From NCBI GenBank assembly GCA_902774025.1, contig CACYGY010000002.1:1-64000 (forward strand): a stretch of 64,000 nt of DNA, in the 5' to 3' direction. Source of the stretch: an uncultured Eubacteriales bacterium. GTDB lineage: Bacteria; Bacillota; Clostridia; Christensenellales; Aristaeellaceae. The translations under genes were made by a program, and so were the position numbers. Shown here one piece after another: positions 27,559-55,170 of the stretch (positions are counted from its first letter, which is position 1; each line of letters begins with the position of its first letter). Under the pieces are notes generated by a model. It did no database searches. It was not told the origin of the DNA and saw nothing but the letters and a program-made list of their open reading frames with translations.

Positions 27559-27591
27559 GGCGGAGATCAATACGAAGAAGGAGAGAAGGAA

Positions 27592-28017
27592 ATGGATCAG
27601 CAGATTTTCCGTAAAAAGAGCCTGGAGCGGATTTCCTCGCCTGAACAGCTGCAGGACTACATGCATGTGACCAGTCCGGGCATCTGGCTGGTGCTGACGG
27701 GGGTGATTCTGGTGCTGGCCGGGCTGATCCTGTGCTCGGCGGTAGGAAGTCTGGAGACCGTGACCACCTGCGTGGCGGAGATTAACGGCGGACAGGTGAC
27801 CTGTGTGCTGAGTGAGGAGCAGTCTCAGAGAGTGGAAGACGGCATGAGCATCCGCATCAGCGGGCACACGGGCGTTGTGGATGTGGTTTACCGGAGTGAC
27901 GGGGATGTGCCCATGGCCATGTGCTTTATGGATCTGCCGGACGGAAACTATAAGGCGGAGATCGTGCTGGAGTCCATCTCTCCCATCAGCTTCCTGCTGA
28001 ATCAGAAGGGAGGCTGA
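27592..28017 (+). CDS. Short HlyD-like NHLM secretion protein
   Basis: The 141-residue protein begins with the hallmark of NHLM bacteriocin-system secretion proteins: IFRKKSLERISSPEQLQDYMHVTSPG. One membrane helix follows (about 30-52), and a small extracellular beta domain makes up the rest. Full-length family members carry a long coiled-coil hairpin and are some hundreds of residues; this one lacks it. It probably acts as a minimal adaptor next to the two ABC proteins encoded 4 nt downstream. GGAGAGAAGG precedes the ATG. Confidence 0.75.
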   Translation: MDQQIFRKKSLERISSPEQLQDYMHVTSPGIWLVLTGVILVLAGLILCSAVGSLETVTTCVAEINGGQVTCVLSEEQSQRVEDGMSIRISGHTGVVDVVYRSDGDVPMAMCFMDLPDGNYKAEIVLESISPISFLLNQKGG

Positions 28018-28021
28018 CGAT

Positions 28022-30250: not shown

Positions 30251-30267
30251 GGAAAGGAGGCGCAGAG

Positions 30268-35851: not shown

Positions 35852-35871
35852 TGTCAAATACCTCCGATGGA

Positions 35872-37800
35872 TCAGCGGACCTGACGGGCATAAAGGATAT
35901 CATTCCGCAGCCGGAAGGTGGTCAGGTCCAGGGCGGGAATGGAGACGGGGAGTTTTCCGCCCGCGTTTTCGGCGCCGAAGACGGCACAGATGGCGGCAGG
36001 CAGATTTGGCATGAAGGCGCTGTCGGGGCCTGTCTCCTGAGGCAGTTCACGCATGGGCGAGGAACCATAGCACAGCATGATTGCGTCTGCCTCCGGAAAG
36101 CGGGCTGCGTCATAAGGCAGCTGACAGCTGATGAGGGCGACCGTCCTCCCCTCTCTGTGGATCGTCTCCATGACGGTGTCGAATGCTTCGGAGGAGAAGC
36201 CGTCCTGGGTCCGGGGATTCAGGCAGTCCAGGTTATAGGTGCGGTAGATCAGCAGTACATGACTGGCCTGCCGGGCCGCCTCCAGGCATTCCTCCGTATT
36301 TCCCCTGGAATGAACCATGGTGCGGACCGTAAGCCTCTCGGGGAGCTTTCCGGCCTTTTTCATGGCTGAGACCGCCAGCTCCGCCGTGGCCGCGCGGTTG
36401 GCACAGGAGTCCGAGAAGAGAATGAGCACTTCGCTTCTTTCCGATACCTGGAAGGGCAGGGTCCGGTTCTCGTTTTTCAGGATGGTCAGGCCGTCCGCGG
36501 CGGCTCTCCAGGCGACCCCCAGGTTTTCCCGGCTACCGATAGACTTCAGGGTATGGCGCTTCTCGTCATTCATCTCGAAGCTGGTCTGGTCCAGAATGCC
36601 GTACTTTTTTTTCAGAAGAAGGATTCTTCCCACGGATTCATCGATCCGGTCCCTGCTGATGATGCCCTTTTCCGCCAGTCTGACCGCTTCATCCAGCATT
36701 TTCCGGATCTTTTCCATATCGGAAGGGCCTGTGATCCCCGGGAGAAGGATCATATTGACGCCGGCATTGATGAGCAGGGGCAGGAGATCGCTCCCGGCAA
36801 TGTTTTTGCGGATGACATCCGCATCCAGGGAGCCTGAGACAATGACACCCTGAAATCCCATCTCTTTCCGGAGGATGTCCTGAAGGATGGCGGGGCTCAT
36901 GGTGGCGGGGAGGCAGATTTTTTCCCCGGTGGAAGCGGAAACGCAGGTGCCTTTCTCAAGCTGCGGATACTGGACATGGGCGGTCATGATCATGTCCGCG
37001 CCTTCCTGGATGGCGGCCTGAAAGGGAACAAGCTCCGACTTTTTCATCTCTTCAAGGGTACGGTCTGCCACAGGAAAGCCCGCAGAACCGTCCGTCACCG
37101 CATTTCCATACCCGGGAAAATGCTTGAGGGTGGCGATGACATTCTTCTCATGCAGACCCCGCAGGAAGGCGACGGCCATGGAGGCGGCAAGCGCGGGATC
37201 ATCCGAAAAGGCGCGTACGCCGATGACCGGATCCCCCGGGCGGCTGTTCACATCCGCCACGGGAGCCAGATCGGCCTGTATGCCCAGAGCGGCCAGCTCC
37301 GAGGCGTGCACGGCGGCCATTTTCCGGACGGTGTCCGTGTTTCCCGTGGCGGCCAGTGCCATGTTCCCCGGGCCTGCGGTGCCGAAGTTCAGCCGGCTGA
37401 CGGAACCGCCTTCCTGGTCGGCGGCAAAGAGCAGCGGCACCGGGCTGTACTGATGATTGGCCTTCTGGATGTCCAGCGTCAGCTGAAGGGTCTGCTCGGC
37501 GGTGCGGATGTTGAGGTCATAGAGGAGGACGCCCCCGATGTGCCAGTCCCTGAGAAAGGAGCGGAGCGGACTGTTCATCAGCGTCAGGGGAATGGTCTGC
37601 TTTTTCTGTCTGTCGGCGGGCGTGGTCTCGCTTTCCCAGCCGGTGATGGTGAGCACCATCATCTGACTGAGCTTGTCCCGGAGAGACATGCCCTTCACCA
37701 GCTCCTCAACGGATGCTGCAGAACCCCGGGAAGGAAAAAAGGCGGGAAGGATCAGGAGAAGACTCAGGAAGAGACAGAGCCTGTTCCGAAAACGACGCAT
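35872..37800 (-). CDS. Secreted GH3-family protein with both catalytic residues lost (pseudoenzyme)
   Basis: The start is ATG 37800 after AGGAGG. The 642-residue protein has a signal peptide and the same two-domain plan as the NagZ at 25651. The conserved framework is present (AADQEGGSVSRL, GPGNMALAAT, LAPVADVNSRP). At the active site the NagZ loop reads KHFPGYGNAVTDGS instead of KHFPGHG...DSH, so the acid-base His is Ser239. The nucleophile Asp of V-I-T-D-A is Gly323 in VIVSGSLDAD. It should not hydrolyse glycosides by the family mechanism. The intact frame, start site and operon with an AmiE-like enzyme argue for a retained binding or scaffolding role. Confidence 0.88.
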   Translation of the reverse strand: MRRFRNRLCLFLSLLLILPAFFPSRGSAASVEELVKGMSLRDKLSQMMVLTITGWESETTPADRQKKQTIPLTLMNSPLRSFLRDWHIGGVLLYDLNIRTAEQTLQLTLDIQKANHQYSPVPLLFAADQEGGSVSRLNFGTAGPGNMALAATGNTDTVRKMAAVHASELAALGIQADLAPVADVNSRPGDPVIGVRAFSDDPALAASMAVAFLRGLHEKNVIATLKHFPGYGNAVTDGSAGFPVADRTLEEMKKSELVPFQAAIQEGADMIMTAHVQYPQLEKGTCVSASTGEKICLPATMSPAILQDILRKEMGFQGVIVSGSLDADVIRKNIAGSDLLPLLINAGVNMILLPGITGPSDMEKIRKMLDEAVRLAEKGIISRDRIDESVGRILLLKKKYGILDQTSFEMNDEKRHTLKSIGSRENLGVAWRAAADGLTILKNENRTLPFQVSERSEVLILFSDSCANRAATAELAVSAMKKAGKLPERLTVRTMVHSRGNTEECLEAARQASHVLLIYRTYNLDCLNPRTQDGFSSEAFDTVMETIHREGRTVALISCQLPYDAARFPEADAIMLCYGSSPMRELPQETGPDSAFMPNLPAAICAVFGAENAGGKLPVSIPALDLTTFRLRNDILYARQVR

Positions 37801-37913
37801 GGTATTCCTCCTGCTGCGTTTCTGAATGTGCAATGAGACAAGATATTCTGACATATCCGGCCGACGGCATCAAGAGAAGGAACGGATTTGTAACATCTTT
37901 TTTCCGGAGAAGC

Positions 37914-37988: not shown

Positions 37989-38594
37989 ATGAAAACAGAT
38001 GTGATAACAGTGTCCAGTCGCGGCAGTCAGATGGAGGCTGCCCTGGAGCAGGTGGAACTGGTGGCGCGCTATAAGAACCTTTCGGAGAAGAGTTCTCTGC
38101 ATCTGCGGCTCCTGGCGGAAGAGACCCTGGGGATGATGCGCAGCATTACGGGAGAAACCGAAGGCCAGTTCTGGATTGAGGATGCGGACGGTGAATTCCA
38201 GCTTCATCTGGTGGTGGAAACCCGGATGAACAGTGAAAAGCGGGGACAGCTTCTGTCCGCCGCCTCCAGCGGAAGGAACGAGTCTGCAAGGGGTCTCATG
38301 GGACGGATCCGGGACTTCTTTGACCGGGGTGCCGATGAGGATGTGGCTACCCTGACCGCTCCCATGTTCATGGGCGGCGCCATTGAGCCCACCGCTTCCC
38401 ATGCCATGGATGTGGAATGGTCCATGACCCAGTATCAGAACTCCCTGGCTCAGAGAGTGGAGGAGAACGACGAGGAAGCGAAGGCTGCCTGGGACGAGAT
38501 GGAGAAGTCCGTGGTCACGCATGTGGCCGACGATATCCGGGTGAGCATCCGGGGTCCCCGCGTGGAAATGATCATCATCAAGAAAATGGCGTAA
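37989..38594 (+). CDS. RsbW/HATPase-fold-like protein, probable partner-switch component
   Basis: The start is ATG 37989 after AGGAGG. The protein has 201 residues. The helix LHLRLLAEETLGMMRSITGE matches the position of the N-box helix of RsbW/SpoIIAB-type anti-sigma kinases (normally E-E-x-x-x-N-A-x-x-H), and the following strands have the same order. The catalytic Asn and His of that box are missing, no clear D-x-G-x-G box follows, and a 60-residue insertion (about 95-155) separates the last strands. It may bind a STAS protein without kinase activity, or bind ATP in a diverged way. The next gene downstream is separated by a terminator. Confidence 0.55.
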   Translation: MKTDVITVSSRGSQMEAALEQVELVARYKNLSEKSSLHLRLLAEETLGMMRSITGETEGQFWIEDADGEFQLHLVVETRMNSEKRGQLLSAASSGRNESARGLMGRIRDFFDRGADEDVATLTAPMFMGGAIEPTASHAMDVEWSMTQYQNSLAQRVEENDEEAKAAWDEMEKSVVTHVADDIRVSIRGPRVEMIIIKKMA

Positions 38595-38599
38595 GCATG

Positions 38600-38632
38600 A
38601 CATGCAGGCCCGAAAGCGGACCTGCATGTTTT
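38600..38632 (+). terminator. Terminator of the RsbW-fold-like gene
   Basis: ACATGCAGG pairs with CCTGCATGT, loop of 12 nt, followed by TTTT. It starts 6 nt after the stop. Confidence 0.85.
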
Positions 38633-38656
38633 CGGATTCCGGGGGGAGGAGAGGGG

Positions 38657-40591
38657 ATGAAGAGAATCTGCGCGGCCATCCTGGCCCACGTGGACGCCGG
38701 AAAGACCACACTTTCCGAACAGCTGCTGCTTCATGCCGGACGCATCCGGGAAGCGGGCAGTGTGGACGCGGGCACGGCGCATACGGATGACCTTCCGGTG
38801 GAGAGACGGAGGGGAATATCCGTTCGCACGACCTGCGTGAGTTTCACATGGAAGGATACGGAAATCCAGCTCATGGATACGCCTGGGCATACGGATTTTT
38901 CGGCACAGATCGAGCGGGCCTTCTGGGCTCTGGACGGGGCGGTGCTGGTGGTGGACGCGGCACGGGGTGTTCAGCCTCAGACAGAGCTTCTGTGCAGGGA
39001 ACTGAGAAAGCAGAACATGCCCTTCATCATCTTCCTGAACAAAATGGACCGGAGCGGGGCGGATCGGGACGGGACGCTGAAACGGATACAGCGCCGGCTC
39101 ACGGAGGCGGCGCTGCCCATGTGGGACCGGGAAGTCCTGACGGAAACCCTGTGTTCTCTCCGGGAGGACTGGATGGTCCGGTATCTGGAGGGAGATGTTC
39201 CCACCCCGGAGGAGGTGGAGACAGAGATTGCGGAAGGTACCTGCGCCGGCAGACTGCATCCGGTGCTCTGGGGATCGGCACTCAGGGATGAAGGCGTGGA
39301 AAGACTCATGGACGCCATGACGGCATGGCTCCCGGACACACGGGATCATGGACAGGGGCTGTCCGGTGTCGTTTTCGCGGCCACGCAGGACAGGACCATG
39401 GGCAGAGGCCTTTGGGTCCGTCTGTTCGGGGGACGGCTGGAAAACCGCATGGCCCTGGAACTGCCGGTTCCGGGGAGCGGGTGGACAGGATCCGGGGAAA
39501 AGGTGGAGCGGAAGATCACCCAGATTCGGGATGGGGACGGCCGGGATCTGGGGTTCCTGGAGGCGGGGCAGACAGGTGTGGTGTACGGGCTGGGGGATCT
39601 GGAGATCGGGCATGTGTTCGGCAGGGTGCCCAGAGTGGTGTCCCCGGGGCAGCTGAGGACGCCGCTGATCACGGTTCAGGTGCTTCCCGACCGGGAGGAG
39701 GAGCGGAAAAGCCTCTGGGAGGCCTGCCGGGAACTGTCCTGGGAGGATCCTCTTCTCCATGCCCGGTATGTGAAGATGACCGGGGAAATCTGCCTTCAGG
39801 TCATGGGCCGGGTACAGCTGGAAATCCTGCAGGAAATCCTGGAAACCCGCTTCGGCCTGAAAGCCCGCTTCGGAGAAGCCCGGGTGATTTACCGGGAGAC
39901 CATCCGGGAAGCAGCCCGGGGATTTGTGGCATATACCATGCCCAAGCCCTGCTGGGCGGTAATGGAGTTTTATCTGGAACCCGGGGAGGCGGGAAGCGGC
40001 GTGACGTTCGTATCCACCGTTGCGGACCGGGACATCATGCCCAGGTACCAGCATCAGGTGGAGCAGGCACTGCCGCTGGCGCTGCGGCAGGGACGTCTGG
40101 GATGGCAGGTGACAGACATCCGGATTACCCTGTGCGGAGGGAACCACCATCTGATTCATACCCATCCTCTGGACTTCATTGTGGCCACCCCCATGGGCAT
40201 TCATGACGGACTGAGAAGGGGCGGGAGCGTCCTGCTGGAACCGATTCTGGAAATGGTGATGATTTTCCCGGAGGAACTGGCGGGGCGGGTGACCAGCGAG
40301 ATCCTGCAGATGCGGGGACAGGTCACGGACACAGAGAACGGCGACGAATCCGTGATTCTGCGTGCCCTTGTGCCGGTGGCCGCCAGCATGGACTGGACGG
40401 ATACCTTCGCATCCCTCACGGGCGGACGGGGAAGCATGACATCCAGTCTTCACAGCTATCGCCCCTGCCCGGAGGGCGTGAAACAGGTCTGTGAACGCCG
40501 CAGTGTGGACCCGCTGGATACGGCCCGGTATATTCTTGCGGCCAGGAGTGCCCTGGAGGGGAACCTGTTTGACGGAGAAATACAGGGATGA
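38657..40591 (+). CDS. Tet(M)/Tet(O)-like ribosome-associated translational GTPase
   Basis: The start is ATG 38657 behind GGAGGAGAGG. The protein has 644 residues, close to Tet(M) (639). The GTPase domain starts at once with HVDAGKTTLSEQLL (Lys16). It continues GSVDAGTAHTDDLPVERRRGIS, DTPGHTDF and FLNKMD, in the order and style of tetracycline ribosomal-protection proteins rather than EF-G. EF-G-like domains II-V follow to the C-terminus. Known relatives remove tetracycline from the ribosome, but many chromosomal clostridial paralogues have no demonstrated resistance role. No mobile element is nearby. Confidence 0.8.
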   Translation: MKRICAAILAHVDAGKTTLSEQLLLHAGRIREAGSVDAGTAHTDDLPVERRRGISVRTTCVSFTWKDTEIQLMDTPGHTDFSAQIERAFWALDGAVLVVDAARGVQPQTELLCRELRKQNMPFIIFLNKMDRSGADRDGTLKRIQRRLTEAALPMWDREVLTETLCSLREDWMVRYLEGDVPTPEEVETEIAEGTCAGRLHPVLWGSALRDEGVERLMDAMTAWLPDTRDHGQGLSGVVFAATQDRTMGRGLWVRLFGGRLENRMALELPVPGSGWTGSGEKVERKITQIRDGDGRDLGFLEAGQTGVVYGLGDLEIGHVFGRVPRVVSPGQLRTPLITVQVLPDREEERKSLWEACRELSWEDPLLHARYVKMTGEICLQVMGRVQLEILQEILETRFGLKARFGEARVIYRETIREAARGFVAYTMPKPCWAVMEFYLEPGEAGSGVTFVSTVADRDIMPRYQHQVEQALPLALRQGRLGWQVTDIRITLCGGNHHLIHTHPLDFIVATPMGIHDGLRRGGSVLLEPILEMVMIFPEELAGRVTSEILQMRGQVTDTENGDESVILRALVPVAASMDWTDTFASLTGGRGSMTSSLHSYRPCPEGVKQVCERRSVDPLDTARYILAARSALEGNLFDGEIQG

Positions 40592-40642
40592 GAAGGCCGG
40601 ATTGGACTCAGGGTCCGCGCCGGAGGCATGTACACTTTTCAG

Positions 40643-40673
40643 GTGTCTCTTCACGGGAGGAGACGCTTTTTTT
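40643..40673 (+). terminator. Terminator of the Tet(M)-like gene
   Basis: GTGTCTC pairs with GAGACGC (one G-T pair) across a 10-nt loop, followed by seven T residues. It almost touches the convergent RCC1 gene end at 40677. Confidence 0.8.
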
Positions 40674-40676
40674 CCG

Positions 40677-41858
40677 TCAGGGTTCTCCGGGATCGGAAAG
40701 CTCTCCCGTGAAGAGGTTCAGACCGGTGGAGGTGAAGCGGGTAACATAATGGCTGATTTTTGTCTGCGTGCCCGCCTGTCCGTACCAGTTGCCTCCCGAG
40801 GACAGAACCATCCCGTCCTCCCGGAGCAGGCAGGTGGTATACTGGGAGACGGAAAGGTCAAGGATTCCGGACTCCGGGACCGATGTCATGTCCAGGGTAT
40901 GCCAGGGTCGGTCCCCGGTGCCCTTCTGTCCGTGTCCGTTGGCACCCCACTGGATGACGCCTCCCTGGGAGGTGAGCACGGACACGTGCAGGTTAAAGCT
41001 GCTCAGGGCAGAGATCACCGTACCTTCAGGGAGGGGGACCGGGACAGGATCCTGGGAACGGGCGCCGGCCTTGCTTCCCAGCTGCCAGTAGTCGTTGAGT
41101 CCCCACGCCCACAGTGTGCCGTCGGAGGTCTGCGCATAGACAGTGGCGTTGCCGCAGGCCATGCGCACCACAGACGCTTCAAGGGGCAGAAGTGTCGGGG
41201 ATGTGACGGGTTTCAGACGGCTGACGGTCATGAGCTGCCCTTCCTTGTTGCTTCCCCAGCCGTAAAGCTGCCCGGAGGCATCCAGGGCAAGACTGAAGCC
41301 CTTGCCGCAGGCGATATCCACAATGTTTTCCAGGGGAAGCTGTTCCGGTACGATCCGGCCTTTCCGGTCTCCCAGACCGAGTTCCCCGCTGCTTCCCTGT
41401 CCCCATGCAAACACATGCCCGTCCTCCGTAAGGGCCAGGGAATGCATCCATCCGCAGGCAATGCGCACGATGCCGGAAAGGAACGGGATCTCCCGGGGTT
41501 CTTTCACGTTCTTCCGGGCGGTGTCATAGCCAAGCTGCCCCTGACTGTTCTGACCGCAGCTGAACACGCTTCCGTCCTGCATGAGGAACAGAACGTGAAA
41601 TTTTCCCGCCTGAATCTCCCGGACCGATCCGCCGTCCAGGTTCGGTGCAATGGGAACGGGGCGGCAGAAGGTCTTTTTTCCGGTTACAGCCAGCTGGCCG
41701 TAGCTGTTATCCCCCCACCCCCAGAGGGAGCCGTCCTGTGCTCTTGCATATACGGACACACTGCCGGAGGCGAGCAGCACCGGGCAGGATGCCTCCGATA
41801 AGGCGGGATTCAGAAAGAGAAGGGAGAGCAGGAAACAGGCAAGAAAGCGGCGCAGCAT
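40677..41858 (-). CDS. Secreted RCC1-repeat beta-propeller protein
   Basis: The 393-residue protein has a signal peptide (MLRRFLACFLLSLLFLNPALSEA) and about seven RCC1 repeats of 50 residues, each with G-x-x-H/Y-x-x-x-L-x-x-D-G-x-x-x-x-W-G (for example DGSLWGWGDNSYGQL, DGHVFAWGQGSSGEL, DGTLWAWGLNDYWQL). These should close into one seven-bladed propeller outside the cell. In bacteria such proteins are mostly adhesins or carbohydrate-binding modules, or are uncharacterised. No anchor motif is seen. CGGAGG precedes the ATG. Confidence 0.88.
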   Translation of the reverse strand: MLRRFLACFLLSLLFLNPALSEASCPVLLASGSVSVYARAQDGSLWGWGDNSYGQLAVTGKKTFCRPVPIAPNLDGGSVREIQAGKFHVLFLMQDGSVFSCGQNSQGQLGYDTARKNVKEPREIPFLSGIVRIACGWMHSLALTEDGHVFAWGQGSSGELGLGDRKGRIVPEQLPLENIVDIACGKGFSLALDASGQLYGWGSNKEGQLMTVSRLKPVTSPTLLPLEASVVRMACGNATVYAQTSDGTLWAWGLNDYWQLGSKAGARSQDPVPVPLPEGTVISALSSFNLHVSVLTSQGGVIQWGANGHGQKGTGDRPWHTLDMTSVPESGILDLSVSQYTTCLLREDGMVLSSGGNWYGQAGTQTKISHYVTRFTSTGLNLFTGELSDPGEP

Positions 41859-45782: not shown

Positions 45783-47087
45783 TTATTCCTCATAGAGCAG
45801 ATAGGGCTTTCGCTGAGCCCGGAACAGATTCAGTCCCTCCTGCCAGGAGGAACGGATTTCCTCCGCGGAGCAGCCTGCCGTGATCATGAGGCGCACCTGG
45901 TCCGTGCCCATGAGTTTGTCCAGATAGTATCGTCCCTGACTGTCCGGGCGTCCGAAAAAATCCACCCCGGGACAGGCTTCGGAGACGGCTCTCCAGGCTT
46001 CCGTGAGGATATCCAGCTGAATCCCGCTCTCCAGGATCCGGGCAGGCTCCATGTCCCTCAGGTCCTTTCCGTAGCAGGTTTCCCCTTCCCACACGGGGGA
46101 GGAAGCGCCGGGACGGCTCTCGGGCACGAAGGTGAAGGAAAAGCCTTCCGTATCCTGCAGATAGGGGCTGCCATAGATTTCAAAGGGGTGATCCGTTCCG
46201 CGGCCCACGGAGACCACTGTGTTCTCAAAGGGGCACAGGGAAGGATACAGGAGTACGGATTTCATGGTCTTCAGGTTGGGGGAAGGCGCGCAGATGAGGC
46301 TGCTGTGCGTCTGGTGCGTGTAGTTCCGGCAGGGAATCACCGTCAGATCCAGGGCATTCCTTCCAGCTTCCAGCCAGCCCTCTCCGTTGATCATCCGGGC
46401 CAGTTCCCCCAGCGTCATGCCGTGTACCACCGGAAGCGGCAGGACACCCACGCCGGAACGGAACCTTTCCTCCAGCATGGGACCGTCCAGAAAATAGCCG
46501 TTGGGATTGGGACGGTCCAGGATAATGACCGGTTTGTGCCAGGCGGCGCACGCATCCATGAGGCGGTACATGGAAATGTAGTAGGTGTAGTAGCGAAGCC
46601 CCACGTCCTGAATATCCACAAGGAGCACATCAAAGGTGTTCATGCTTTCATCGGACGGTCTGCGGCTGTTGCCGGAATAAAGGGAGAGAATCGGCACGCC
46701 GGTTTTCTCATCCACGGAACTGCTGACGGATTCTCCGGCTCCCGCTTCCCCGCGGAATCCATGCTCCGGACTGAAGACGGCCGTGACATGAACGTCCTGC
46801 CGGATGAGTGCGTCCAGAATGTGTTCACCCAGGGTCACACCCTGCCCGAAGGGGACGAGGAGCGGGTCTGTCCCTTCCGGAAAGACGTCTGCAGGCTCCG
46901 TATGGTCTCCCACAATGCCGCTCTGATTGGAAAACAGGGCCACACGTTTCCCCTCCAGGAGGGGCAGGTACAGGGCAAACTGCTCGTCCCCCAGAATGAC
47001 TTCCCCGCCCTGGGAAAGGGCCGTGGGAAGCCCGGGGGAAAGGGCCATGACCAGGATCAGGAGAAAAGAAAGATGGAATCGCTTCAT
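45783..47087 (-). CDS. namZ: Secreted exo-beta-N-acetylmuramidase NamZ (DUF1343, GH171)
   Basis: The start is ATG 47087 after GGAGG. The 434-residue protein has a signal peptide (MKRFHLSFLLILVMALSPGLPTALS). Family hallmarks follow in order: KRVALFSNQSGIVGD, FSPEHGFRGEAGAGE, DVLLVDIQDVGLRYYTY, PVIILDRPNPNG, VHGMTLGELARMING and NTVVSVGRGTDHPFE. Bacillus NamZ (YbbC) releases terminal MurNAc from glycan ends after NagZ has removed GlcNAc, and is encoded with nagZ and amiE. Here the equivalents lie 8-20 kb away. No murQ- or murP-like gene is present in the window. Confidence 0.92.
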   Translation of the reverse strand: MKRFHLSFLLILVMALSPGLPTALSQGGEVILGDEQFALYLPLLEGKRVALFSNQSGIVGDHTEPADVFPEGTDPLLVPFGQGVTLGEHILDALIRQDVHVTAVFSPEHGFRGEAGAGESVSSSVDEKTGVPILSLYSGNSRRPSDESMNTFDVLLVDIQDVGLRYYTYYISMYRLMDACAAWHKPVIILDRPNPNGYFLDGPMLEERFRSGVGVLPLPVVHGMTLGELARMINGEGWLEAGRNALDLTVIPCRNYTHQTHSSLICAPSPNLKTMKSVLLYPSLCPFENTVVSVGRGTDHPFEIYGSPYLQDTEGFSFTFVPESRPGASSPVWEGETCYGKDLRDMEPARILESGIQLDILTEAWRAVSEACPGVDFFGRPDSQGRYYLDKLMGTDQVRLMITAGCSAEEIRSSWQEGLNLFRAQRKPYLLYEE

Positions 47088-47284
47088 GCATGCCTCCGGG
47101 TTGCGGGCAGACGGGAGTCCGCCGGTTCTTCTGTGAATATACAGGACAGCCGGGAAATCATCAAGGGCGGAAGCGGGACGGGAGAGGGCATCGGAGCGGA
47201 ACCTGCCCGTGTTTCCGGACATCCCCGGGCACAGGAGAGGAAATGTAACAAAACCGCAGCCAAAGCAATGAAAAGGTCTTTACA

Positions 47285-47314
47285 TTGACACATGCGGAGG
47301 CGGGTTACTATAAT
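47285..47314 (+). promoter_or_regulatory. Near-consensus promoter of the giant repeat-protein gene
   Basis: Perfect TTGACA (47285-47290), an 18-nt spacer and perfect TATAAT (47309-47314), 57 nt before the ATG. This is the strongest promoter match I saw in the window. Confidence 0.8.
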
Positions 47315-47370
47315 CTTTACAGACACAGCAGGCACAGGGACAGATCCATAATCAGCCTGGAGGAATCGAA

Positions 47371-50300
47371 ATGCTTGATCATATTGGCGGGAAATACGGG
47401 GTGCGCACGGGTACAAGGGGAAGGATCCTTCTCCTCCTGTTTCTTTTCTGCGTCTTTTTCCTGATGCCTGCGGGCGCCGAGGTGTCTTCCAACCTGCGGA
47501 TCCGGACCACACGGGATACCAGGACAGGCCTTAAGGATATGGATACCTATGTGGACAGCCAGGATCAGGTGGTGGTTCCGGAGGACCTGGGCTACGCTTC
47601 CATCAGGTATATCTACGGGACCAATGACCGTGTGATCCGGGAGGAGCATCTGGATGCCCGGGGTCAGCTGACCGACGGCGTGGAAGGCTATGCCAGCAGG
47701 AATTACAGGTATACCGGCCAGAACGTTTCGGAAACACGCTATGAAAATAAGGACGGGCAGACGGTCACAGGTCCGGAAGGATATGCCCGCCAGGTCGTAA
47801 ACTGGCAGAACGGGCTGCACCAGACCACCTATGCCTATGATCCGGAGGGAAACCTGACAGGTCTCCACCGGATTTCCGAGTATGTCAAAAACACCCGGAG
47901 GCTTCTTCGGGACAGCTGGTATGACGTGGAGAACAATCTGGCCATGGGTCCGGATGGTTATGCCAGGGTAGAGTATGAGTACCAGGGAACCCAGATTACA
48001 AAGATCACCTATCTGAACGAACGGGAAGAGCTGTGCATCCATGGCGGATTTGCCGTCATGGTGTCTGAGTATGCCCAGGGAAAGGTGCGCAGGACCGCCT
48101 ATTATGGCACCAAGGGTCAGCTGATTGCCGGACCCAAGGGTTACGCGGAGGTGATCTACAGCTATCCGAACTCGGAACTGTGTCTGGAAATGTACTACAA
48201 CGCCGACCGGACTCCCTGGTTTCACAGGAATGGTTACTGCGGTTATGCCTGGGCCAAAACCGTCCGCAGACGCCTTGGAGAGGAGATCTATTACAAGGGG
48301 GAAAATATCCGGGGCAACAGCAAGGAGAATTACAGCCGGGTCAAGAGGACGTTTATCCGCCGGGGCGATGTGGCCACGGAAAAGTATTATGATGTGAATG
48401 ACGAACCCCTGATGGTGCCCACCCTGGGCTATGCATCCCTGAAGAACTCATACTATAACGGGAAGTACCTGGTTCAGACGGTTTACTATGATGTGGCGGG
48501 AAAACCCGTACGCAATATACAGGGCGTTGCGGTGGTGAACCACAGGTATGAAAAAGGCTACCGGGTGGAAACGAGTTACTACGACACGGATGGAAAAACC
48601 CCGGTGGAGGATGCCAACGGCATTTCCCGGATCCTTTTTGAAAACAACAGTGACGGCCGGAACATCCGGGTCCGGTATCTGAATGCTCAGGGCGAGGGTA
48701 CCCCCGGTCCCGATGACTGCGATGAAGTGCGGTATGACTGGAACGGCAAGCAGTGCATTTCGGAGAGCTACTGGAACGGAGGCGAGCCGGCCCTGGGAAC
48801 GGAAGGCGCCCACGAGGTCCGTACGGAATATAACGGGAGAGGCAAAGTCATTACCCGGTCTTTTCTGGACGCCGAAGGGCAGATGATGACGGGCAGTAAG
48901 GGCTATGCCCGGGAAGAAACGGAATACAGCCCGGCAGGCACCGTCATCGCGGTGCGCTATACGGATACGGAGGGGCATCTGGTCCTGACTCCCAACAAGG
49001 AATATGCCTTTATCCGGACTGTGCACAGCCGTGAAGGTTCTGAGGAAATCTTCATGGAAGAGGAGGAAGGCGGGGAAGAAGAGGAAACGGAGACCGATAT
49101 GGCCGGGACCGGGGATGAGGAGACGGAAGGGGAAGAAGAAGAGGAAGCGGCTTCAGCCTATGACATTGTGCGGGTGGAATATCATGGCCTGGACGGCCGC
49201 CTGATGACTGTCCGGGACGGTTACGCCTGCATCATCCGGGAGATGGATGCCCATGGTCTCTGCACAAAGGAAACCTATCTGGATACGGAGGGCCGGATCG
49301 TCAGGCAGAGGCAGGGATATGCCATCCTGTGCATGGAGTATGACGAAAGCGGCCGGATGACGACAAAGATCTGTCTGGACGAGGAAGGCCGGAGGGTGAA
49401 CAACATCTCCGGATGGCACCGCATGGAACAGTTCTGGACGCCGGGCGGCCAGAAGGCAGGCGAATCCTGGTTTGATGCCAGCCTTCAGCCTGTGGGTGCG
49501 GGCAATACCTATGCCCGGGTGGAGAGAACCTATGACGAGCTGGGCAATGTGAGCAGCGAATCCTACTTCGGACTGGACGGCGAGCCCTGCGCGTGCCTGG
49601 ACGGATATGACCAGGTGAGGCGGGTGTATGATGAAAACCGGAGACTGATCCGGGAGGAATACGATCTGCAGGGCAGCCCGGTGATGCGGATCCAGGGCTA
49701 TGCTATTTTGGAACGGGATTATGATGACGCGGGCCATATCACAATGGAAGCGTACTTCGGCACACAGGGAGAGAAGGTACGGAGTGCTGACGGGTATCAC
49801 CGGGTGGAGCGGCTTTTCAATGACCAGGGAAAGACCGTTCGGGAAGCCTGGTTCGATGAGGAGGACCAGCCTGTGCCCGGGACAGATCTGTATGTCCGGG
49901 TGGAGAGAGACTACAACGCTGAAGGCAGCATGACCGGGGAACGGTATTTCGGAGCCGACGGGCAGCGGATGGCGGGCAGCGCCGGTTATGACACACTTCT
50001 CAGAACCTATGATGAAAATCAGTCACTGATCCGGGAAGCCTTTTATCTGCAGGATCAGCTGGTGATGTGCAGCCGGGGGTATGCCGTGATGGAGCGTACC
50101 TGTGATCCCTCCGGTCTTGTGATCATGGAAAAGTACTTCGGCCCGCAGGGGGAAAAGGTCCTGGGCCCCTCCGGCTATCACCGCATTGAGCGGACCTGGT
50201 ACGCAAAGGATAAGGCGTCCATGGAAGCCTGGTTCGATACGGAGGACCAGCCCATGCCCCTGAGGGACCTGTATGTCCGGGTGGAAAGGACCTACAACTC

Positions 50301-53300
50301 TGTGGGCAATGTGACCGAGGAAAGATACTACGGGCCGGAAGGCCCCGCGGCATGCGCCTCCGGGTATGATACGCTTCGCAGGACCTATAATGAAAAACAG
50401 CAGATGATCCGGGAAGACTATTTCCTGAACGGCATGCCTGTCCTGAACAGCAGGGGATATGCCAGCCTGGAGCGTATCTATGAAGGGAAAGGCCTTGTGG
50501 CCACGGAAAGATACTTCGGAACCGACGGGGAGAGAGTCCGGAGCACCTCGGGATATCACCGTATTGACCGCACCTGGTTTGACAAGGACAGACCGACTTC
50601 GGAGGAATGGTACGACGAGGAGAATCAGCCCGTACCCTTCAGGGACCTGTATGTCCGGGTGGAAAGAGACTATAACCCCGAAGGAAATATCACGGAGGAA
50701 AGATACTACGCTCCGGGCCATCAGAGTACGGCCTGCAGCGGGGGATATGATACGCTCCGGAGAACCTATGACGAGGGGCAGCATATCATTGTGGAAGCAT
50801 ATTTCCTGGACGGACAGCCTGTTCTGAACAGCAAGTGGTATGCCCGTCTGGAGAGGACCTATGACGAAAGAGGCTATGTTGCCTCGGAGATGTATTTCGG
50901 TCTTGAGGGGGAAAGAGTCCGGAGTTCCTCGGAATACCACCGTATTGACCGGGTCTGGTTCGACAAGGACAAGGCTTCCTCCGAAGCCTGGTTTGATGAA
51001 AAAGACCACCCTGTTACCCACAAGGACACGTATGTGCGGGTGGAAAGAATCTATAACGGGGACGGGAATATCACGGAGGAGAGGTATTACAGTCCGGAGG
51101 GCCTGACAGCCTGTCTGGCCGGGTATGATACCCTCAGGAGAACCTATGACCAGGATCAGCGTATGATCCTGGAGGAGTATTACCTGAATGAAAAAAGGGT
51201 TCTGAACAACAGGGGATACGCTGTCCTGGAACGCGCGTATGACAGCGCGGGTCTGGTCACCATGGAGCAGTACCTGGGCACGCAGGAGGAAAAGGTCCGG
51301 AGCACATCGGGTTATCACCGGGTGGAACGCGTGTGGTTTGCCAGGGATAAGGCACTGTCCGAGGCCTGGTTCGATGAAAACGACCAGCCTGTTGCCGTGA
51401 AGGACCTGTATGTGCGGGTGGAAAGGGAATACAACCCTGAAGGGAACCTGACGGAGGAACGGTATTACGGACCGGACGGCCCGACTGCGTGCGCGGCCGG
51501 ATATGATACGCTTCGGAGAACCTACGACCAGGAGCAGCAGATGATCCGGGAAGAGTACTTCCTGGAAGGCAGTCGGGCTCTGGGAAGCAGGGGATATGCC
51601 ATTCTGGAGCGGGAATATGACGATGCGGGCTTAATGGTTCTGGAAAGATACCTGGGCACACAGGAGGAAAAGGTCCGGAGCACATCCGGCTACCACCGGA
51701 TTGAGCGTACCTGGTTTGCCAGGGACAAGGCGGCCTCTGAAGCCTGGTATGACGAGAATGATCAGCTCGTTTTCGTGAAAGACCTCTACACGCGCATGGA
51801 GAGGGATTATGATGACGCCGGCAATGTGACGGAGGAGCGGTATTACGGCCCGGCGGGTCTGACGGCCTGCAGCGACGGATATGATACGGTTCGGAGAACC
51901 TATGACGAAAAACAGCAGATGGTGCGGGAAGAGTACTTCCTGAATGGCCAGCGGGTTCTCTGCAGCCGTGGCTACGCCATCCTGGAACGCGCCTGGGATG
52001 ATCTGGGCCTTGTGGCCATGGAAAGATATCTGGATACGCAGGAGAGAAAGGTCCGCAGCACATCGGGCTATCATCGCGTTGAACGGACGTGGTACGCCAG
52101 GGACAAGGCCTCCTCCGAAGCATGGTTTGATGAGATGGATCAGCCTGTACCGCTGAAGGACCGGTATGTCCGAGTGGAAAGGGATTACAACAGGGAAGGA
52201 AGCGTGACGGAGGAAAGGTACTACGGGCCGGACGGCGGGTATCAGGCATGTGCCGACGGGTATGACACGGTCGTGAGGACTTATAATAAAAAGCAGCAGA
52301 TGATCCGGGAAGAATATTTCCTTGAGGGCCAGCGGGTCCTCTGCGGAAAGGGATATGCGATCCTGGAGCGGGAATATGACGAGGCGGGTCTTGCTGTCAT
52401 GGAAAGGTACCTGGGCGTGCGGGAGGAGAAGGTCCGGAGCACGTCAGGTTACCATCGTGTGGAGCGCACGTGGCATGCCAAGGACAAACCTTCCTCTGAG
52501 GCCTGGTTTGACGAACAGGATCAGCCCGTAACCCAGGGGGATCTGTATGTCCGTGTGGAAATGGATTATGACAGCGCGGGCAATGTGGCGGAGGAAAGGT
52601 ACTACGGAGCGGATGGCCGGCCCCAGGCCTGTGCAGCCGGGTATGACATGGTCCGTAAAACCTGCAACGAAAAGAGAAAGGTGATCCGGGAAGCCTATTT
52701 CCTGGAGGGCATGCCTTTCCTGAACAGGGAAGGATACGCCGTGAGGGAAAGGGATTATGACAGTGCGGGCCTTGTGACCATGGAGCGGTATTTCGGGACC
52801 GCGGATGAAAAGGTCCGGAGCTCTTCCGGATACCACCGCATTGAACGGACCTGGTATGCCCGGGGGAAGGCTTCCTCGGAGGCCTGGTTTGACGAGAATG
52901 ACCAGCCCATCCCCAGGCGGGATCTGTATGTCCGGGTGGAGAGGGAATATGACGCGGCGGGCAATGTGTCGGAGGAAAGGTACTATGGACCTGACGGCCT
53001 GCCCACAGCGTGCAAGGCCGGATATGATGTGATCCGGATGACCCGCAATGAAAAGGGCCAGGTCATCCGTGAAGCCTGCTTCCTGAACGGGCAGCCTTAC
53101 CCGGGCAGCAGCGGCGCGGCCGTGGTGGAGCGCACCTATGATGACGCGGGTCTGGTGGCGACGGAACGGTATTTCGGAGCAGACGGGGAAAGGGTCCGGA
53201 ACGCTTCCGGATACCACCGGATTGACCGGACCTGGTACACCAAGGACAAGGCTGCCTCCGAAGCCTGGTTCGACGAACAGGATCAGCCTGTGACCCTGGG

Positions 53301-55170
53301 AGATCTGTATGTCCGGGTGGAGAGGGAATATGATGCGGCGGGCAATGTGTCGGAGGAAAGATATTTCGGAGTAAACGGCATGACCGCCTGCAGGGCCGGA
53401 TATGACACGGTCCGGAGAACGTACGATGAGAATGGACGGGTGATCCGGGAAGCCTTGTTCCTGAAGGGCCGGCCCTTCAGGAACGGTGAGGGGTATGCCA
53501 GTCTGACCCGGGAGTATGACGATGCCGGCTTTGTGGCTGTGGAACGGTATTTCGGGACAGAGGAGGAAAAGGTCCGGAATACATCCGGTTACCATCGCAT
53601 TGACCGGACCTGGTACGCCAAGGACAAGCCCTCGTCCAAGGCATGGTTTGATGAACAGGATCAGCCCGTGACTCAGGGAGACCTGTATGTCCGGGTGGAG
53701 ATGGACTATGACAGCGCGGGCAATGTGACGGAGGAAAGGTACTACGGAGCGGACGGCCGGCCCCAGGCCTGCTCCGCCGGATATGACATGGTCCGGAGAA
53801 CCTTCAATGAAAAGAAAAAGGTGATCCGGGAAGCCTATTTCCTGGATGGCCAGCCCTTCCTGACCCGGGACGGGTATGCCGTGCGGGAGCGTGACTATGA
53901 CACCGCGGGCCTTGTGGCCATGGAACGGTACTTCGGGACAGCGGGGGAAAAGGTCCGGAGCACTTCAGGATACCACCGCATTGACCGGACCTGGCATGCC
54001 CGGGGCAAGGCTTCCTCGGAGGCCTGGTTTGACGAGAATGACCAGCCCATCCCCCGGAGAGACCTGTATGTCCGGGTGGAGAGAGAGTATGACGCGGCGG
54101 GCAATGTGTCGGAGGAAAGGTACTATGGGCCTGACGGGGAAACTTTGGCCTGCAGGGCCGGACATGATCAGGTGAAGATGACCTGCGACGAAAAGGGACG
54201 GGTCATCCGGGAAGCCTATTTCCTGAAAGGTGAACCCTTCCTGAACAGCAAGGGCTATGCCGGCCTTGAGCGCACCTATGATGACGCGGGGCTTGTAGCC
54301 ACGGAAAGCTATTTCGGAACAGAAGGGGAGAAAGTCAGAAATTCTTCCGGCTATCACCGTATTGAATACACATGGTACGCCAAAGACAGGGCTTCCTCAG
54401 AAGCCTGGTTCGACGAGCAGGATCAGCCTGTATCCCTGAAGGACCTGTATGTCCGGGTGGAGAAGGAATATGATGCGGCGGGCAATGTGTCGGAGGAAAG
54501 ATACTATGGGCCCGATGGCCGGCCTGCAGCCTGCAGGGCAGGATATGATACGATCCGGAAAGATTTCAATGACAGGAAGCAGATCATCCGGGAAGCCTAT
54601 TTCCTGGAGGGTGAACCCTTCCTGAACAGCAGGGGATATGCGGCTCTGGAGCGCACCTGGGATGAGGCGGGCCTTGTGGCCATGGAGCGATACTTCGGAA
54701 CAGCGGGGGAAAAAGTCCGGAGTTCCTCCGGCTACCACCGCATTGAACGGACGTGGTATGCCAAAGACAAGGCTTCTTCGGAGGCCTGGTTCGACGAAAA
54801 GGATCAGCCCATACCTCTGAAGGATCTGTATGTGAGGGTGGAAAGGGTTTATGAGGACGGGGCGGTAACGGAAAAGTACTTCGGCCCGGACGGCCCCACT
54901 GCCTGCAGGGCAGGGTATGAACAGGTCCGCAGGGAACTGGATGACAAAGGCCGGACGGTGCTGGAGTTCTACATGAACGCCGACGGTCAGAGCAAAGCCA
55001 ATGGAAAAGGCGTGTACAGAACGGCCTATGTCTACGATGAAAAGGGCCGCGTGATCCAGGAATCCTATTATGATGAGCAGGGAGAACCCATCGCCGATGT
55101 GAATGGACACCGGAAGGTGAGCCGGACCTATGACGAGAAAGGAAAGGTGACTGCCGAACGGTTTGAGTAA
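47371..55170 (+). CDS. Giant secreted tandem-repeat protein (2,599 residues)
   Basis: GGAGG precedes the ATG. A signal peptide (about 1-36, RILLLLFLFCVFFLMPAGA) leads into a chain of roughly 80 degenerate units of about 31 residues, G-Y-x-x-[VIL]-x-R-x-Y-[DN]-x-x-G-x-[VI]-x-x-E-x-Y-[FY]-x-x-x-[GD]. Units 1 to about 20 are diverse. An acidic linker rich in Glu lies at about 555-600. From residue 745 the units fall into 14 regular four-unit blocks of about 126 residues (types GYDTLRRTYDE, GYAxLERxYDD, GYHRxERTWYA, LYVRVERDYN). There is no LPxTG motif, S-layer domain, enzyme domain or C-terminal toxin. The units resemble Rhs/YD-type beta-hairpins in pattern only. It is probably an elongated surface or released fibre; the function is unknown. 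Confidence 0.9.
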   Translation: MLDHIGGKYGVRTGTRGRILLLLFLFCVFFLMPAGAEVSSNLRIRTTRDTRTGLKDMDTYVDSQDQVVVPEDLGYASIRYIYGTNDRVIREEHLDARGQLTDGVEGYASRNYRYTGQNVSETRYENKDGQTVTGPEGYARQVVNWQNGLHQTTYAYDPEGNLTGLHRISEYVKNTRRLLRDSWYDVENNLAMGPDGYARVEYEYQGTQITKITYLNEREELCIHGGFAVMVSEYAQGKVRRTAYYGTKGQLIAGPKGYAEVIYSYPNSELCLEMYYNADRTPWFHRNGYCGYAWAKTVRRRLGEEIYYKGENIRGNSKENYSRVKRTFIRRGDVATEKYYDVNDEPLMVPTLGYASLKNSYYNGKYLVQTVYYDVAGKPVRNIQGVAVVNHRYEKGYRVETSYYDTDGKTPVEDANGISRILFENNSDGRNIRVRYLNAQGEGTPGPDDCDEVRYDWNGKQCISESYWNGGEPALGTEGAHEVRTEYNGRGKVITRSFLDAEGQMMTGSKGYAREETEYSPAGTVIAVRYTDTEGHLVLTPNKEYAFIRTVHSREGSEEIFMEEEEGGEEEETETDMAGTGDEETEGEEEEEAASAYDIVRVEYHGLDGRLMTVRDGYACIIREMDAHGLCTKETYLDTEGRIVRQRQGYAILCMEYDESGRMTTKICLDEEGRRVNNISGWHRMEQFWTPGGQKAGESWFDASLQPVGAGNTYARVERTYDELGNVSSESYFGLDGEPCACLDGYDQVRRVYDENRRLIREEYDLQGSPVMRIQGYAILERDYDDAGHITMEAYFGTQGEKVRSADGYHRVERLFNDQGKTVREAWFDEEDQPVPGTDLYVRVERDYNAEGSMTGERYFGADGQRMAGSAGYDTLLRTYDENQSLIREAFYLQDQLVMCSRGYAVMERTCDPSGLVIMEKYFGPQGEKVLGPSGYHRIERTWYAKDKASMEAWFDTEDQPMPLRDLYVRVERTYNSVGNVTEERYYGPEGPAACASGYDTLRRTYNEKQQMIREDYFLNGMPVLNSRGYASLERIYEGKGLVATERYFGTDGERVRSTSGYHRIDRTWFDKDRPTSEEWYDEENQPVPFRDLYVRVERDYNPEGNITEERYYAPGHQSTACSGGYDTLRRTYDEGQHIIVEAYFLDGQPVLNSKWYARLERTYDERGYVASEMYFGLEGERVRSSSEYHRIDRVWFDKDKASSEAWFDEKDHPVTHKDTYVRVERIYNGDGNITEERYYSPEGLTACLAGYDTLRRTYDQDQRMILEEYYLNEKRVLNNRGYAVLERAYDSAGLVTMEQYLGTQEEKVRSTSGYHRVERVWFARDKALSEAWFDENDQPVAVKDLYVRVEREYNPEGNLTEERYYGPDGPTACAAGYDTLRRTYDQEQQMIREEYFLEGSRALGSRGYAILEREYDDAGLMVLERYLGTQEEKVRSTSGYHRIERTWFARDKAASEAWYDENDQLVFVKDLYTRMERDYDDAGNVTEERYYGPAGLTACSDGYDTVRRTYDEKQQMVREEYFLNGQRVLCSRGYAILERAWDDLGLVAMERYLDTQERKVRSTSGYHRVERTWYARDKASSEAWFDEMDQPVPLKDRYVRVERDYNREGSVTEERYYGPDGGYQACADGYDTVVRTYNKKQQMIREEYFLEGQRVLCGKGYAILEREYDEAGLAVMERYLGVREEKVRSTSGYHRVERTWHAKDKPSSEAWFDEQDQPVTQGDLYVRVEMDYDSAGNVAEERYYGADGRPQACAAGYDMVRKTCNEKRKVIREAYFLEGMPFLNREGYAVRERDYDSAGLVTMERYFGTADEKVRSSSGYHRIERTWYARGKASSEAWFDENDQPIPRRDLYVRVEREYDAAGNVSEERYYGPDGLPTACKAGYDVIRMTRNEKGQVIREACFLNGQPYPGSSGAAVVERTYDDAGLVATERYFGADGERVRNASGYHRIDRTWYTKDKAASEAWFDEQDQPVTLGDLYVRVEREYDAAGNVSEERYFGVNGMTACRAGYDTVRRTYDENGRVIREALFLKGRPFRNGEGYASLTREYDDAGFVAVERYFGTEEEKVRNTSGYHRIDRTWYAKDKPSSKAWFDEQDQPVTQGDLYVRVEMDYDSAGNVTEERYYGADGRPQACSAGYDMVRRTFNEKKKVIREAYFLDGQPFLTRDGYAVRERDYDTAGLVAMERYFGTAGEKVRSTSGYHRIDRTWHARGKASSEAWFDENDQPIPRRDLYVRVEREYDAAGNVSEERYYGPDGETLACRAGHDQVKMTCDEKGRVIREAYFLKGEPFLNSKGYAGLERTYDDAGLVATESYFGTEGEKVRNSSGYHRIEYTWYAKDRASSEAWFDEQDQPVSLKDLYVRVEKEYDAAGNVSEERYYGPDGRPAACRAGYDTIRKDFNDRKQIIREAYFLEGEPFLNSRGYAALERTWDEAGLVAMERYFGTAGEKVRSSSGYHRIERTWYAKDKASSEAWFDEKDQPIPLKDLYVRVERVYEDGAVTEKYFGPDGPTACRAGYEQVRRELDDKGRTVLEFYMNADGQSKANGKGVYRTAYVYDEKGRVIQESYYDEQGEPIADVNGHRKVSRTYDEKGKVTAERFE
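49603..54912 (+). repeat. Fourteen tandem blocks of about 379 nt (126 codons) inside the giant gene
   Basis: Each block begins with a G-Y-D codon triplet (first at 49603, fifteenth at 54913) and contains four different unit types in fixed order. The mean spacing is 5,310 nt / 14 = 379 nt. The third unit type always carries a W-[YF]-x-[KR]-[DG]-K-[AP] segment and E-A-W-[FY]-D. Confidence 0.9.
52441..54720 (+). repeat. 1,140-nt super-repeat (two copies of a three-block segment)
   Basis: Copy A is about 52441-53580 and copy B about 53581-54720. Matching segments lie exactly 1,140 nt apart, for example 52561/53701, 52891/54031 and 53281/54421, with near-identical DNA over tens of bases. This indicates a recent in-frame duplication of three blocks (380 codons). 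Confidence 0.8.

What the first reader, a model, noticed from the sequence alone, without database searches (positions are those of the whole stretch)
47371..55170. Giant 2,599-residue secreted protein made of about 31-residue units with nested periodicity
The whole mature protein is repeat. Single units of about 31 residues build four-unit blocks of about 126 residues (14 of them), and these build a 380-residue super-repeat. Unit types alternate in strict order, which suggests a regular fibre or superhelix with a four-unit pitch. Tyr, Arg and Glu are placed regularly (RxY[DN] and ExY[FY]). I recognise no named family beyond a loose Rhs/YD-like look.
Basis: seen in the sequence. Interest (0 to 1): 0.82.

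Follow-up and report, generated by a model that had tools for sequence, protein, structure and literature searches.

The report
Giant secreted YD-like hairpin-repeat protein
A gut or rumen Clostridia bacterium encodes a 2,599-residue secreted protein built almost wholly of small beta-hairpin repeats related to Rhs/YD repeats; relatives recur across its bacterial family, and one branch sits in a conserved operon with capsule-assembly genes, which points to a toxin-free building part of the cell's sugar coat.

Summary
ORF 47371-55170 encodes a 2,599-aa pre-protein with a signal peptide and about 80 units of 31-32 aa. From residue 745, four unit types follow strictly A-B-C-D in 14 blocks. The claimed 380-aa super-repeat is not a true level: one block pair (9 and 12) is 87% identical, and three-block spacing is no more alike than adjacent blocks. 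AlphaFold predicts one beta-hairpin per unit (pLDDT 86 and 95). Foldseek's best PDB matches are Rhs/YD shells, but global shape does not superpose. Sequence tests place it on the edge of the YD/RHS family. It has no toxin domain, no Rhs cleavage motif and no plug.

Relatives occur in 57 of 150 genomes of its bacterial family, nearly none outside. Its branch keeps a colinear N-terminal module, then an array whose period varies between relatives (2, 4, 5 or 7 units), so four units is a duplication step, not a structural pitch. A sister branch has constant length (about 1,960 aa). In 20 of 21 genomes it lies between a Wzz/tyrosine-kinase gene and an LCP glycan-ligase gene; 11 of 12 held-out genomes showed the full trio.

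Best reading: a surface-glycan-layer scaffold protein. For the window copy this rests on homology.

The parts
47285..47314 (+). sigma-70-type promoter-like site TTGACA-N18-TATAAT (12 of 12)
   Evidence: 13 of 20 genes of the same branch have a site of at least 9/12 within 220 bp, background ORFs 89 of 649
47359..47364 (+). ribosome-binding site GGAGGA, 6 bases before the ATG
   Evidence: read in sequence
47371..47478 (+). signal peptide, residues 1-36 (predicted cleavage PAGA^EV)
   Evidence: sequence; relatives share the next residues AE[VL]S[ST]NL
47479..49041 (+). conserved N-terminal module, residues 37-557: about 17 diverged hairpin units, colinear in relatives
   Evidence: alignment A3, 30-43% identity to the window protein; profile match starting at the mature N-terminus in about 20 proteins; AlphaFold pLDDT 86
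49042..49155 (+). acidic low-complexity insert, residues 558-595
   Evidence: sequence; pLDDT below 50; similar acidic inserts at this place in L041-L043
49156..49602 (+). transition units, residues 596-744
49603..54912 (+). amplified array: 14 blocks of four units (A-B-C-D), residues 745-2514
   Evidence: AlphaFold of three blocks pLDDT 95, pTM 0.79
54913..55170 (+). C-terminal YD-like units, residues 2515-2599, and stop; no further domain
   Evidence: best stretch of TIGR01643 YD_repeat_2x at 2567-2597

Best explanation
It is a Sec-exported, toxin-free, giant YD-like beta-hairpin repeat protein that works as a structural scaffold in the outer glycan layer of the cell. Shown by computation: signal peptide, hairpin units, conserved N-terminal module followed by a variable array, no catalytic or toxin part, own near-perfect promoter; a sister branch of constant length sits in an operon between a Wzz/BY-kinase (polysaccharide chain-length co-polymerase) and an LCP glycan ligase. 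Inferred: the N-terminal module docks at the surface or onto the polysaccharide machinery, the hairpins stack into one continuous twisted or spiralling sheet that reaches outward, the glycan and the protein hold each other at the surface (the LCP enzyme may join glycan to the protein or to the wall beside it), and recombination between 381-bp repeats changes its reach between species.
For: Signal peptide and repeats to the last residues, no other domain. Hairpin fold. Branch 1 (window type): N-terminal module colinear across up to 15 of 50 genera sampled (some hits are cross-matches inside the other branch) while array period and length vary. Branch 2: 1,950-1,978 aa, 50-61% identical between genera with one 86% and one 88% pair, in 21 of 150 genomes and 11 genera; flanked by Wzz/BY-kinase and LCP. 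From Wzz-LCP spacing alone three further giants were predicted in G082, G055, G099 and found. Held-out test on 12 more genomes: Wzz upstream in 12, LCP downstream in 11; the exception, G036, has a giant frame of only 731 aa. Branch 1 also touches glycan genes in some genomes: CapD-type Polysacc_synt_2 in G120 (same genus as the window) and G066, UDP-sugar dehydrogenase plus glycosyltransferase in L043, Wzz + LCP + CapD in G096 and G135. Other repeat-bearing proteins are fused to VanZ or lie beside DUF6077 and CapD genes. Precedent: LcpA of Actinomyces oris, gene-linked to the surface protein GspA, glycosylates it (PMC7831098).
Against: The window gene is a lone transcription unit with no polysaccharide gene next to it (neighbours NamZ and Gfo/Idh/MocA); its genome has no detected Wzz, and most branch-1 genes lack glycan neighbours. 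No known wall- or glycan-binding domain, no sortase signal. Operon linkage does not tell what the protein does. No expression, localisation or binding data exist here.
Confidence: 0.45

Rival explanations
1. A long adhesive fibre that binds plant fibre, mucus or other microbes, not functionally tied to glycans. The N-terminal module anchors it and the array is a variable-length stalk.
For: Secreted, repeat-only, length varies between species, own near-perfect promoter, lone gene in the window; relatives come from goat, sheep and rumen MAGs.
Against: No known adhesin or anchor domain; branch 2 is fixed in length and bound to Wzz and LCP genes.
Confidence: 0.25
2. A Rhs/WapA-like toxin-delivery shell whose hairpins wrap a toxic cargo.
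For: Sequence and fold kinship with Rhs/YD shells.
Against: No C-terminal domain after the repeats in any of 42 unfused proteins (at most 68 aa left), no DP(I/L)GXXGG... cleavage motif in any, no Rhs core model hit. Published Rhs proteins are defined by both (PMC11461821).
Confidence: 0.05
3. A lattice-forming (S-layer-like) coat protein that self-assembles.
For: Large, secreted, acidic (computed pI 4.98), own consensus promoter.
Against: No SLH or other S-layer wall-binding domain; size varies widely between close relatives.
Confidence: 0.1
4. A repeat array that expands by recombination and carries little function beyond its conserved N-terminal part.
For: Array period differs between homologues; blocks 9 and 12 are 87% identical in DNA.
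Against: Frames stay open over 1,100-3,356 aa in many genomes; substitutions between blocks 9 and 12 favour third positions (12, 10 and 29 in positions 1, 2 and 3); key columns invariant in all 14 blocks.
Confidence: 0.1

Closest known systems
YD/RHS repeats (TIGR01643, PF05593): Rhs and WapA proteins, Tc-toxin shells, teneurins
   Same: Tyr-Asp/Gly hairpin motif, two strands per unit, continuous beta-sheet, best Foldseek and VIA matches
   Different: Unit is 31-32 aa with a GY-start, whereas TIGR01643 is a 42-position model of two repeats; no plug, no Rhs core, no cleavage motif, no C-terminal toxin domain; whole protein is repeat; global shape does not superpose (rmsd mostly above 15 A in the Foldseek alignments)
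GspA-LcpA pair of Actinomyces oris (PMC7831098)
   Same: LCP enzyme gene linked to a secreted surface protein
   Different: Different protein family, no sortase signal here, and a Wzz/BY-kinase is added in the operon of branch 2
CpsA-CpsC-CpsD capsule module of streptococci (LCP, Wzz, BY-kinase)
   Same: The two flanking genes of the branch-2 operon are of these families
   Different: Wzz and kinase are fused (about 470-570 aa), and a giant repeat protein lies between them and the LCP
DUF3836 and BF3112, small Bacteroides proteins (4r8o, 3msw)
   Same: Compact hairpin-repeat pieces superpose locally (Z 8.1, rmsd 2.8 A over 84 residues; Z 8.6, rmsd 4.3 A over 114)
   Different: About 100-140 aa only, no giant arrays; relation by fold, near the noise level of the method

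Membership tests
YD/RHS repeat family | Sequence match to a YD/RHS repeat model above its curated cut-off | tested here: met
   TIGR01643 31.5 bits vs 15.8; relative L082 PF05593 48.8 vs 22. PF05593 itself does not hit the window protein, so the match is at the edge
YD/RHS repeat family | Beta-hairpin units forming a continuous sheet | tested here: met
   AlphaFold models, hairpins only; predicted, not solved
YD/RHS repeat family | Closed spiral shell or cocoon | tested here: inconclusive
   Foldseek E 1.5e-23 to 8qja but TM 0.22 and rmsd 28 A; VIA Z up to 10.6, mostly with high rmsd
Rhs polymorphic toxins | DP(I/L)GXXGGX5YX8D(P/S)XG(L/W) cleavage motif | tested here: not met
   absent from the window protein and all relatives scanned
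Rhs polymorphic toxins | C-terminal variable toxin domain after the repeats | tested here: not met
   repeats run to the C-terminus; at most 68 aa follow the last unit in 42 unfused proteins
Surface-glycan (capsule) locus protein | Gene lies with capsule/EPS genes | tested here: inconclusive
   met for branch 2 (20 of 21 genomes) and for some branch-1 relatives; not met for the window gene itself
Surface-glycan (capsule) locus protein | Physical association with or effect on surface glycan | not testable with these tools
   needs culture work
MORN repeats | Match to MORN models over cut-off | tested here: not met
   no MORN hit for the window protein; relatives reach only 23.6 and 19.5 bits vs cut-off 29.6 for MORN_2

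The most novel reading that the evidence does not exclude
YD-type hairpin repeats, known as toxin shells and neuronal adhesion cores, have here been turned into a dedicated part of polysaccharide assembly: a giant extracellular sheet or tube encoded between a Wzz/BY-kinase and an LCP ligase that serves as acceptor, ruler or conduit for the growing surface glycan, with lineage-specific paralogues such as the window protein forming variable-length extensions.
Probability: 0.2. Interest if true: 0.85.

Novelty: new variant of a known kind. Interest (0 to 1): 0.6.

Why it matters
YD/RHS repeats are known chiefly from toxins and teneurins. A family of toxin-free giants made only of such hairpins, with one branch welded into a capsule-type operon in a gut and rumen bacterial family, would give the fold a new role. 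It would also add an unexpected protein partner to Wzz/LCP glycan assembly, and the fixed-length branch is a clean target for genetics in a cultured relative.

Tried and rejected
Pfam scan: only FAM219A, a low-complexity artefact (28.4 bits, no single stretch passing). PDB sequence search: chance hits only. The four-unit block as structural pitch: rejected from homologues. A 380-aa super-repeat level: rejected. Rhs toxin: rejected. Phage or plasmid origin: no tblastn match in either collection. Aggregate Pfam tally of mixed neighbours showed no dominating partner; the signal appeared only when immediate neighbours were separated by branch. MAFFT misregistered four-block rows, so a three-block alignment was folded instead. 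Literature searches found no paper joining YD repeats to LCP or Wzz genes; the library is open-access only. No paper mentions DUF3836.

Full report
Observation. The ORF is as stated: 2,599 aa, with a hydrophobic N-terminal segment and a signal-peptidase-type site after residue 36, no lipobox and no LPXTG. The gene has its own promoter-like site, TTGACA-N18-TATAAT at 47285-47314 (12 of 12), and a GGAGGA ribosome-binding site. Neighbours are NamZ (divergent, upstream) and a Gfo/Idh/MocA oxidoreductase (convergent, downstream), so it is most likely a transcription unit of its own.

Repeat anatomy. Autocorrelation peaks at 31/32 and, strongest, at 127 residues. The unit consensus is GYARVERTYDEKGKVIRERYFDLEGQPVRN. 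From residue 745 four unit types, starting GYD, GYA, GYH and LYV, follow in strict order through 14 blocks. Before that lie about 20 diverged units (residues 37-744) interrupted by an acidic insert at 558-595. After it come three units closest to canonical YD repeats. Between blocks 9 and 12, DNA differences fall mostly in third codon positions (29 of 51), which suggests the array is under protein-level constraint.

Fold. AlphaFold, without templates, gives pLDDT 86 for residues 37-744 and 95 (pTM 0.79) for three blocks. Nearly every unit is two antiparallel strands, and there is no helix apart from a three-residue turn. Foldseek's best PDB matches are Rhs/YD shells (8qja, E 1.5e-23 and 2.2e-15), then teneurins, Tc-toxin shells, mosquito SGS1 and OspA. 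TM-scores are low and rmsd high, so local build is shared and overall curvature is not established. VIA-align gives Z about 10 to the same group with mostly large rmsd. For scale, the teneurin shell has 78 strands in about 800 residues and is a 7.8 x 4.8 nm tube (PMC5851990); the present protein would have about 160 strands (inference from two strands per unit).

Family. In 150 sampled genomes of the same bacterial family 57 match; the order and phylum samples each add one genome outside the family. Record titles of relatives are goat, sheep and rumen Clostridia MAGs. The family is probably Aristaeellaceae; that is an inference, since the genomes held are unnamed. Two branches emerged. Branch 1, with the window protein, starts AE[VL]S[ST]NL after the signal peptide and keeps a colinear N-terminal module (30-43% identity to the window protein) followed by a free-running array: 4 units in many, 5 in L043 (160 aa), 2 in L056 (66 aa), 7 in L058 and L062 (226-231 aa), while L059, outside both branches, is mixed. 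Branch 2 has no variable array: eight full-length members are 1,950-1,978 aa and 50-61% identical between genera. The four-unit block is thus a duplication unit of some lineages, not a structural requirement.

Genome context. Branch 2 was first seen in L064, L065, L066, L070 and L072 between a fused Wzz/BY-kinase and an LCP gene, with overlapping or nearly touching ends in most. Whole-genome searches for CapD, LCP and Wzz in 27 genomes then showed three Wzz-LCP pairs with a 7-kb gap; fetching these gaps revealed giant repeat proteins of 1,954-1,969 aa in each. A profile of the branch-2 N-terminus finds 21 of 150 genomes in 11 genera. Twelve of these had not been looked at; there the Wzz lies just upstream in all 12 and the LCP just downstream in 11, the exception having a giant frame of only 731 aa. 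With the nine earlier ones, the full trio holds in 20 of 21. Under random placement, 11 of 32 Wzz genes next to a giant would have probability about 4e-18 (a rough figure that ignores shared ancestry and assumes three giants per genome).

For branch 1 the link is weaker: CapD-type genes touch the giant in G120 (same genus as the window) and G066; Wzz, LCP and CapD lie beside it in G096 and G135; UDP-sugar dehydrogenase and a glycosyltransferase flank it in L043. Most branch-1 genes, including the window gene, have no such neighbour, but 13 of 20 have a promoter-like site of at least 9/12 against 89 of 649 background ORFs (Fisher p 4e-7; the background includes some spurious ORFs). Branch 2, inside the operon, mostly lacks one.

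Mechanism. The protein has no catalytic, toxin or known binding domain, no Rhs cleavage motif and nothing after the repeats. A structural role at the surface is the simplest reading. The branch-2 operon ties the family to glycan assembly; the A. oris LcpA-GspA pair (PMC7831098) shows that an LCP enzyme can act on a gene-linked surface protein. Steps shown here by computation: export signal, hairpin build, family structure, operon. Steps inferred: surface location, glycan association, role of array length.

Comparison and novelty. By sequence it belongs at the edge of the YD/RHS repeats; it is not a Rhs toxin. A toxin-free, repeat-only giant family with a Wzz-giant-LCP operon was not found in the literature searched, which covers open-access papers only. 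I rate it a new variant of a known kind.

Noticed in passing
L064, L065, L066, L070, L072, L080, L095, L096, L097: Conserved operon Wzz/BY-kinase - giant YD-like repeat protein of about 1,960 aa - short-form LCP, in 20 of 21 genomes that have this branch. A stronger lead than the window gene itself.
   Followed up: yes
L009:4493-6247 (own genome, contig C1) and L075:8204-11605: Repeats of the same family fused behind a multi-pass membrane region; in L075 next to a DUF6077 gene and a CapD-type gene.
   Followed up: partly
L041:4916-6376 and L071:6612-8036: Secreted hairpin repeats fused to a C-terminal VanZ-like membrane domain.
   Followed up: partly
L077:3813-7478: Outside the bacterial family: a Ser/Thr protein kinase fused to hairpin repeats of this type (1,221 aa).
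   Followed up: no
window 33857-35857, 35872-37854, 45783-47222 (- strand): S12 beta-lactamase-like protein, GH3 glycosidase and NamZ within 14 kb: looks like peptidoglycan recycling close to the giant gene.
   Followed up: no
window 28022-32484 (+): Two ABC transporters in a row, the first with a C39 peptidase domain (bacteriocin-type exporter).
   Followed up: no
window 40677-41858 (-): RCC1-repeat protein of 393 aa, a beta-propeller type better known from eukaryotes.
   Followed up: no
window 25705-28179 (-) and 38450-40654 (-): Two ORFs of 824 and 734 aa without any Pfam match; the first overlaps other long ORFs and may not be a gene.
   Followed up: no
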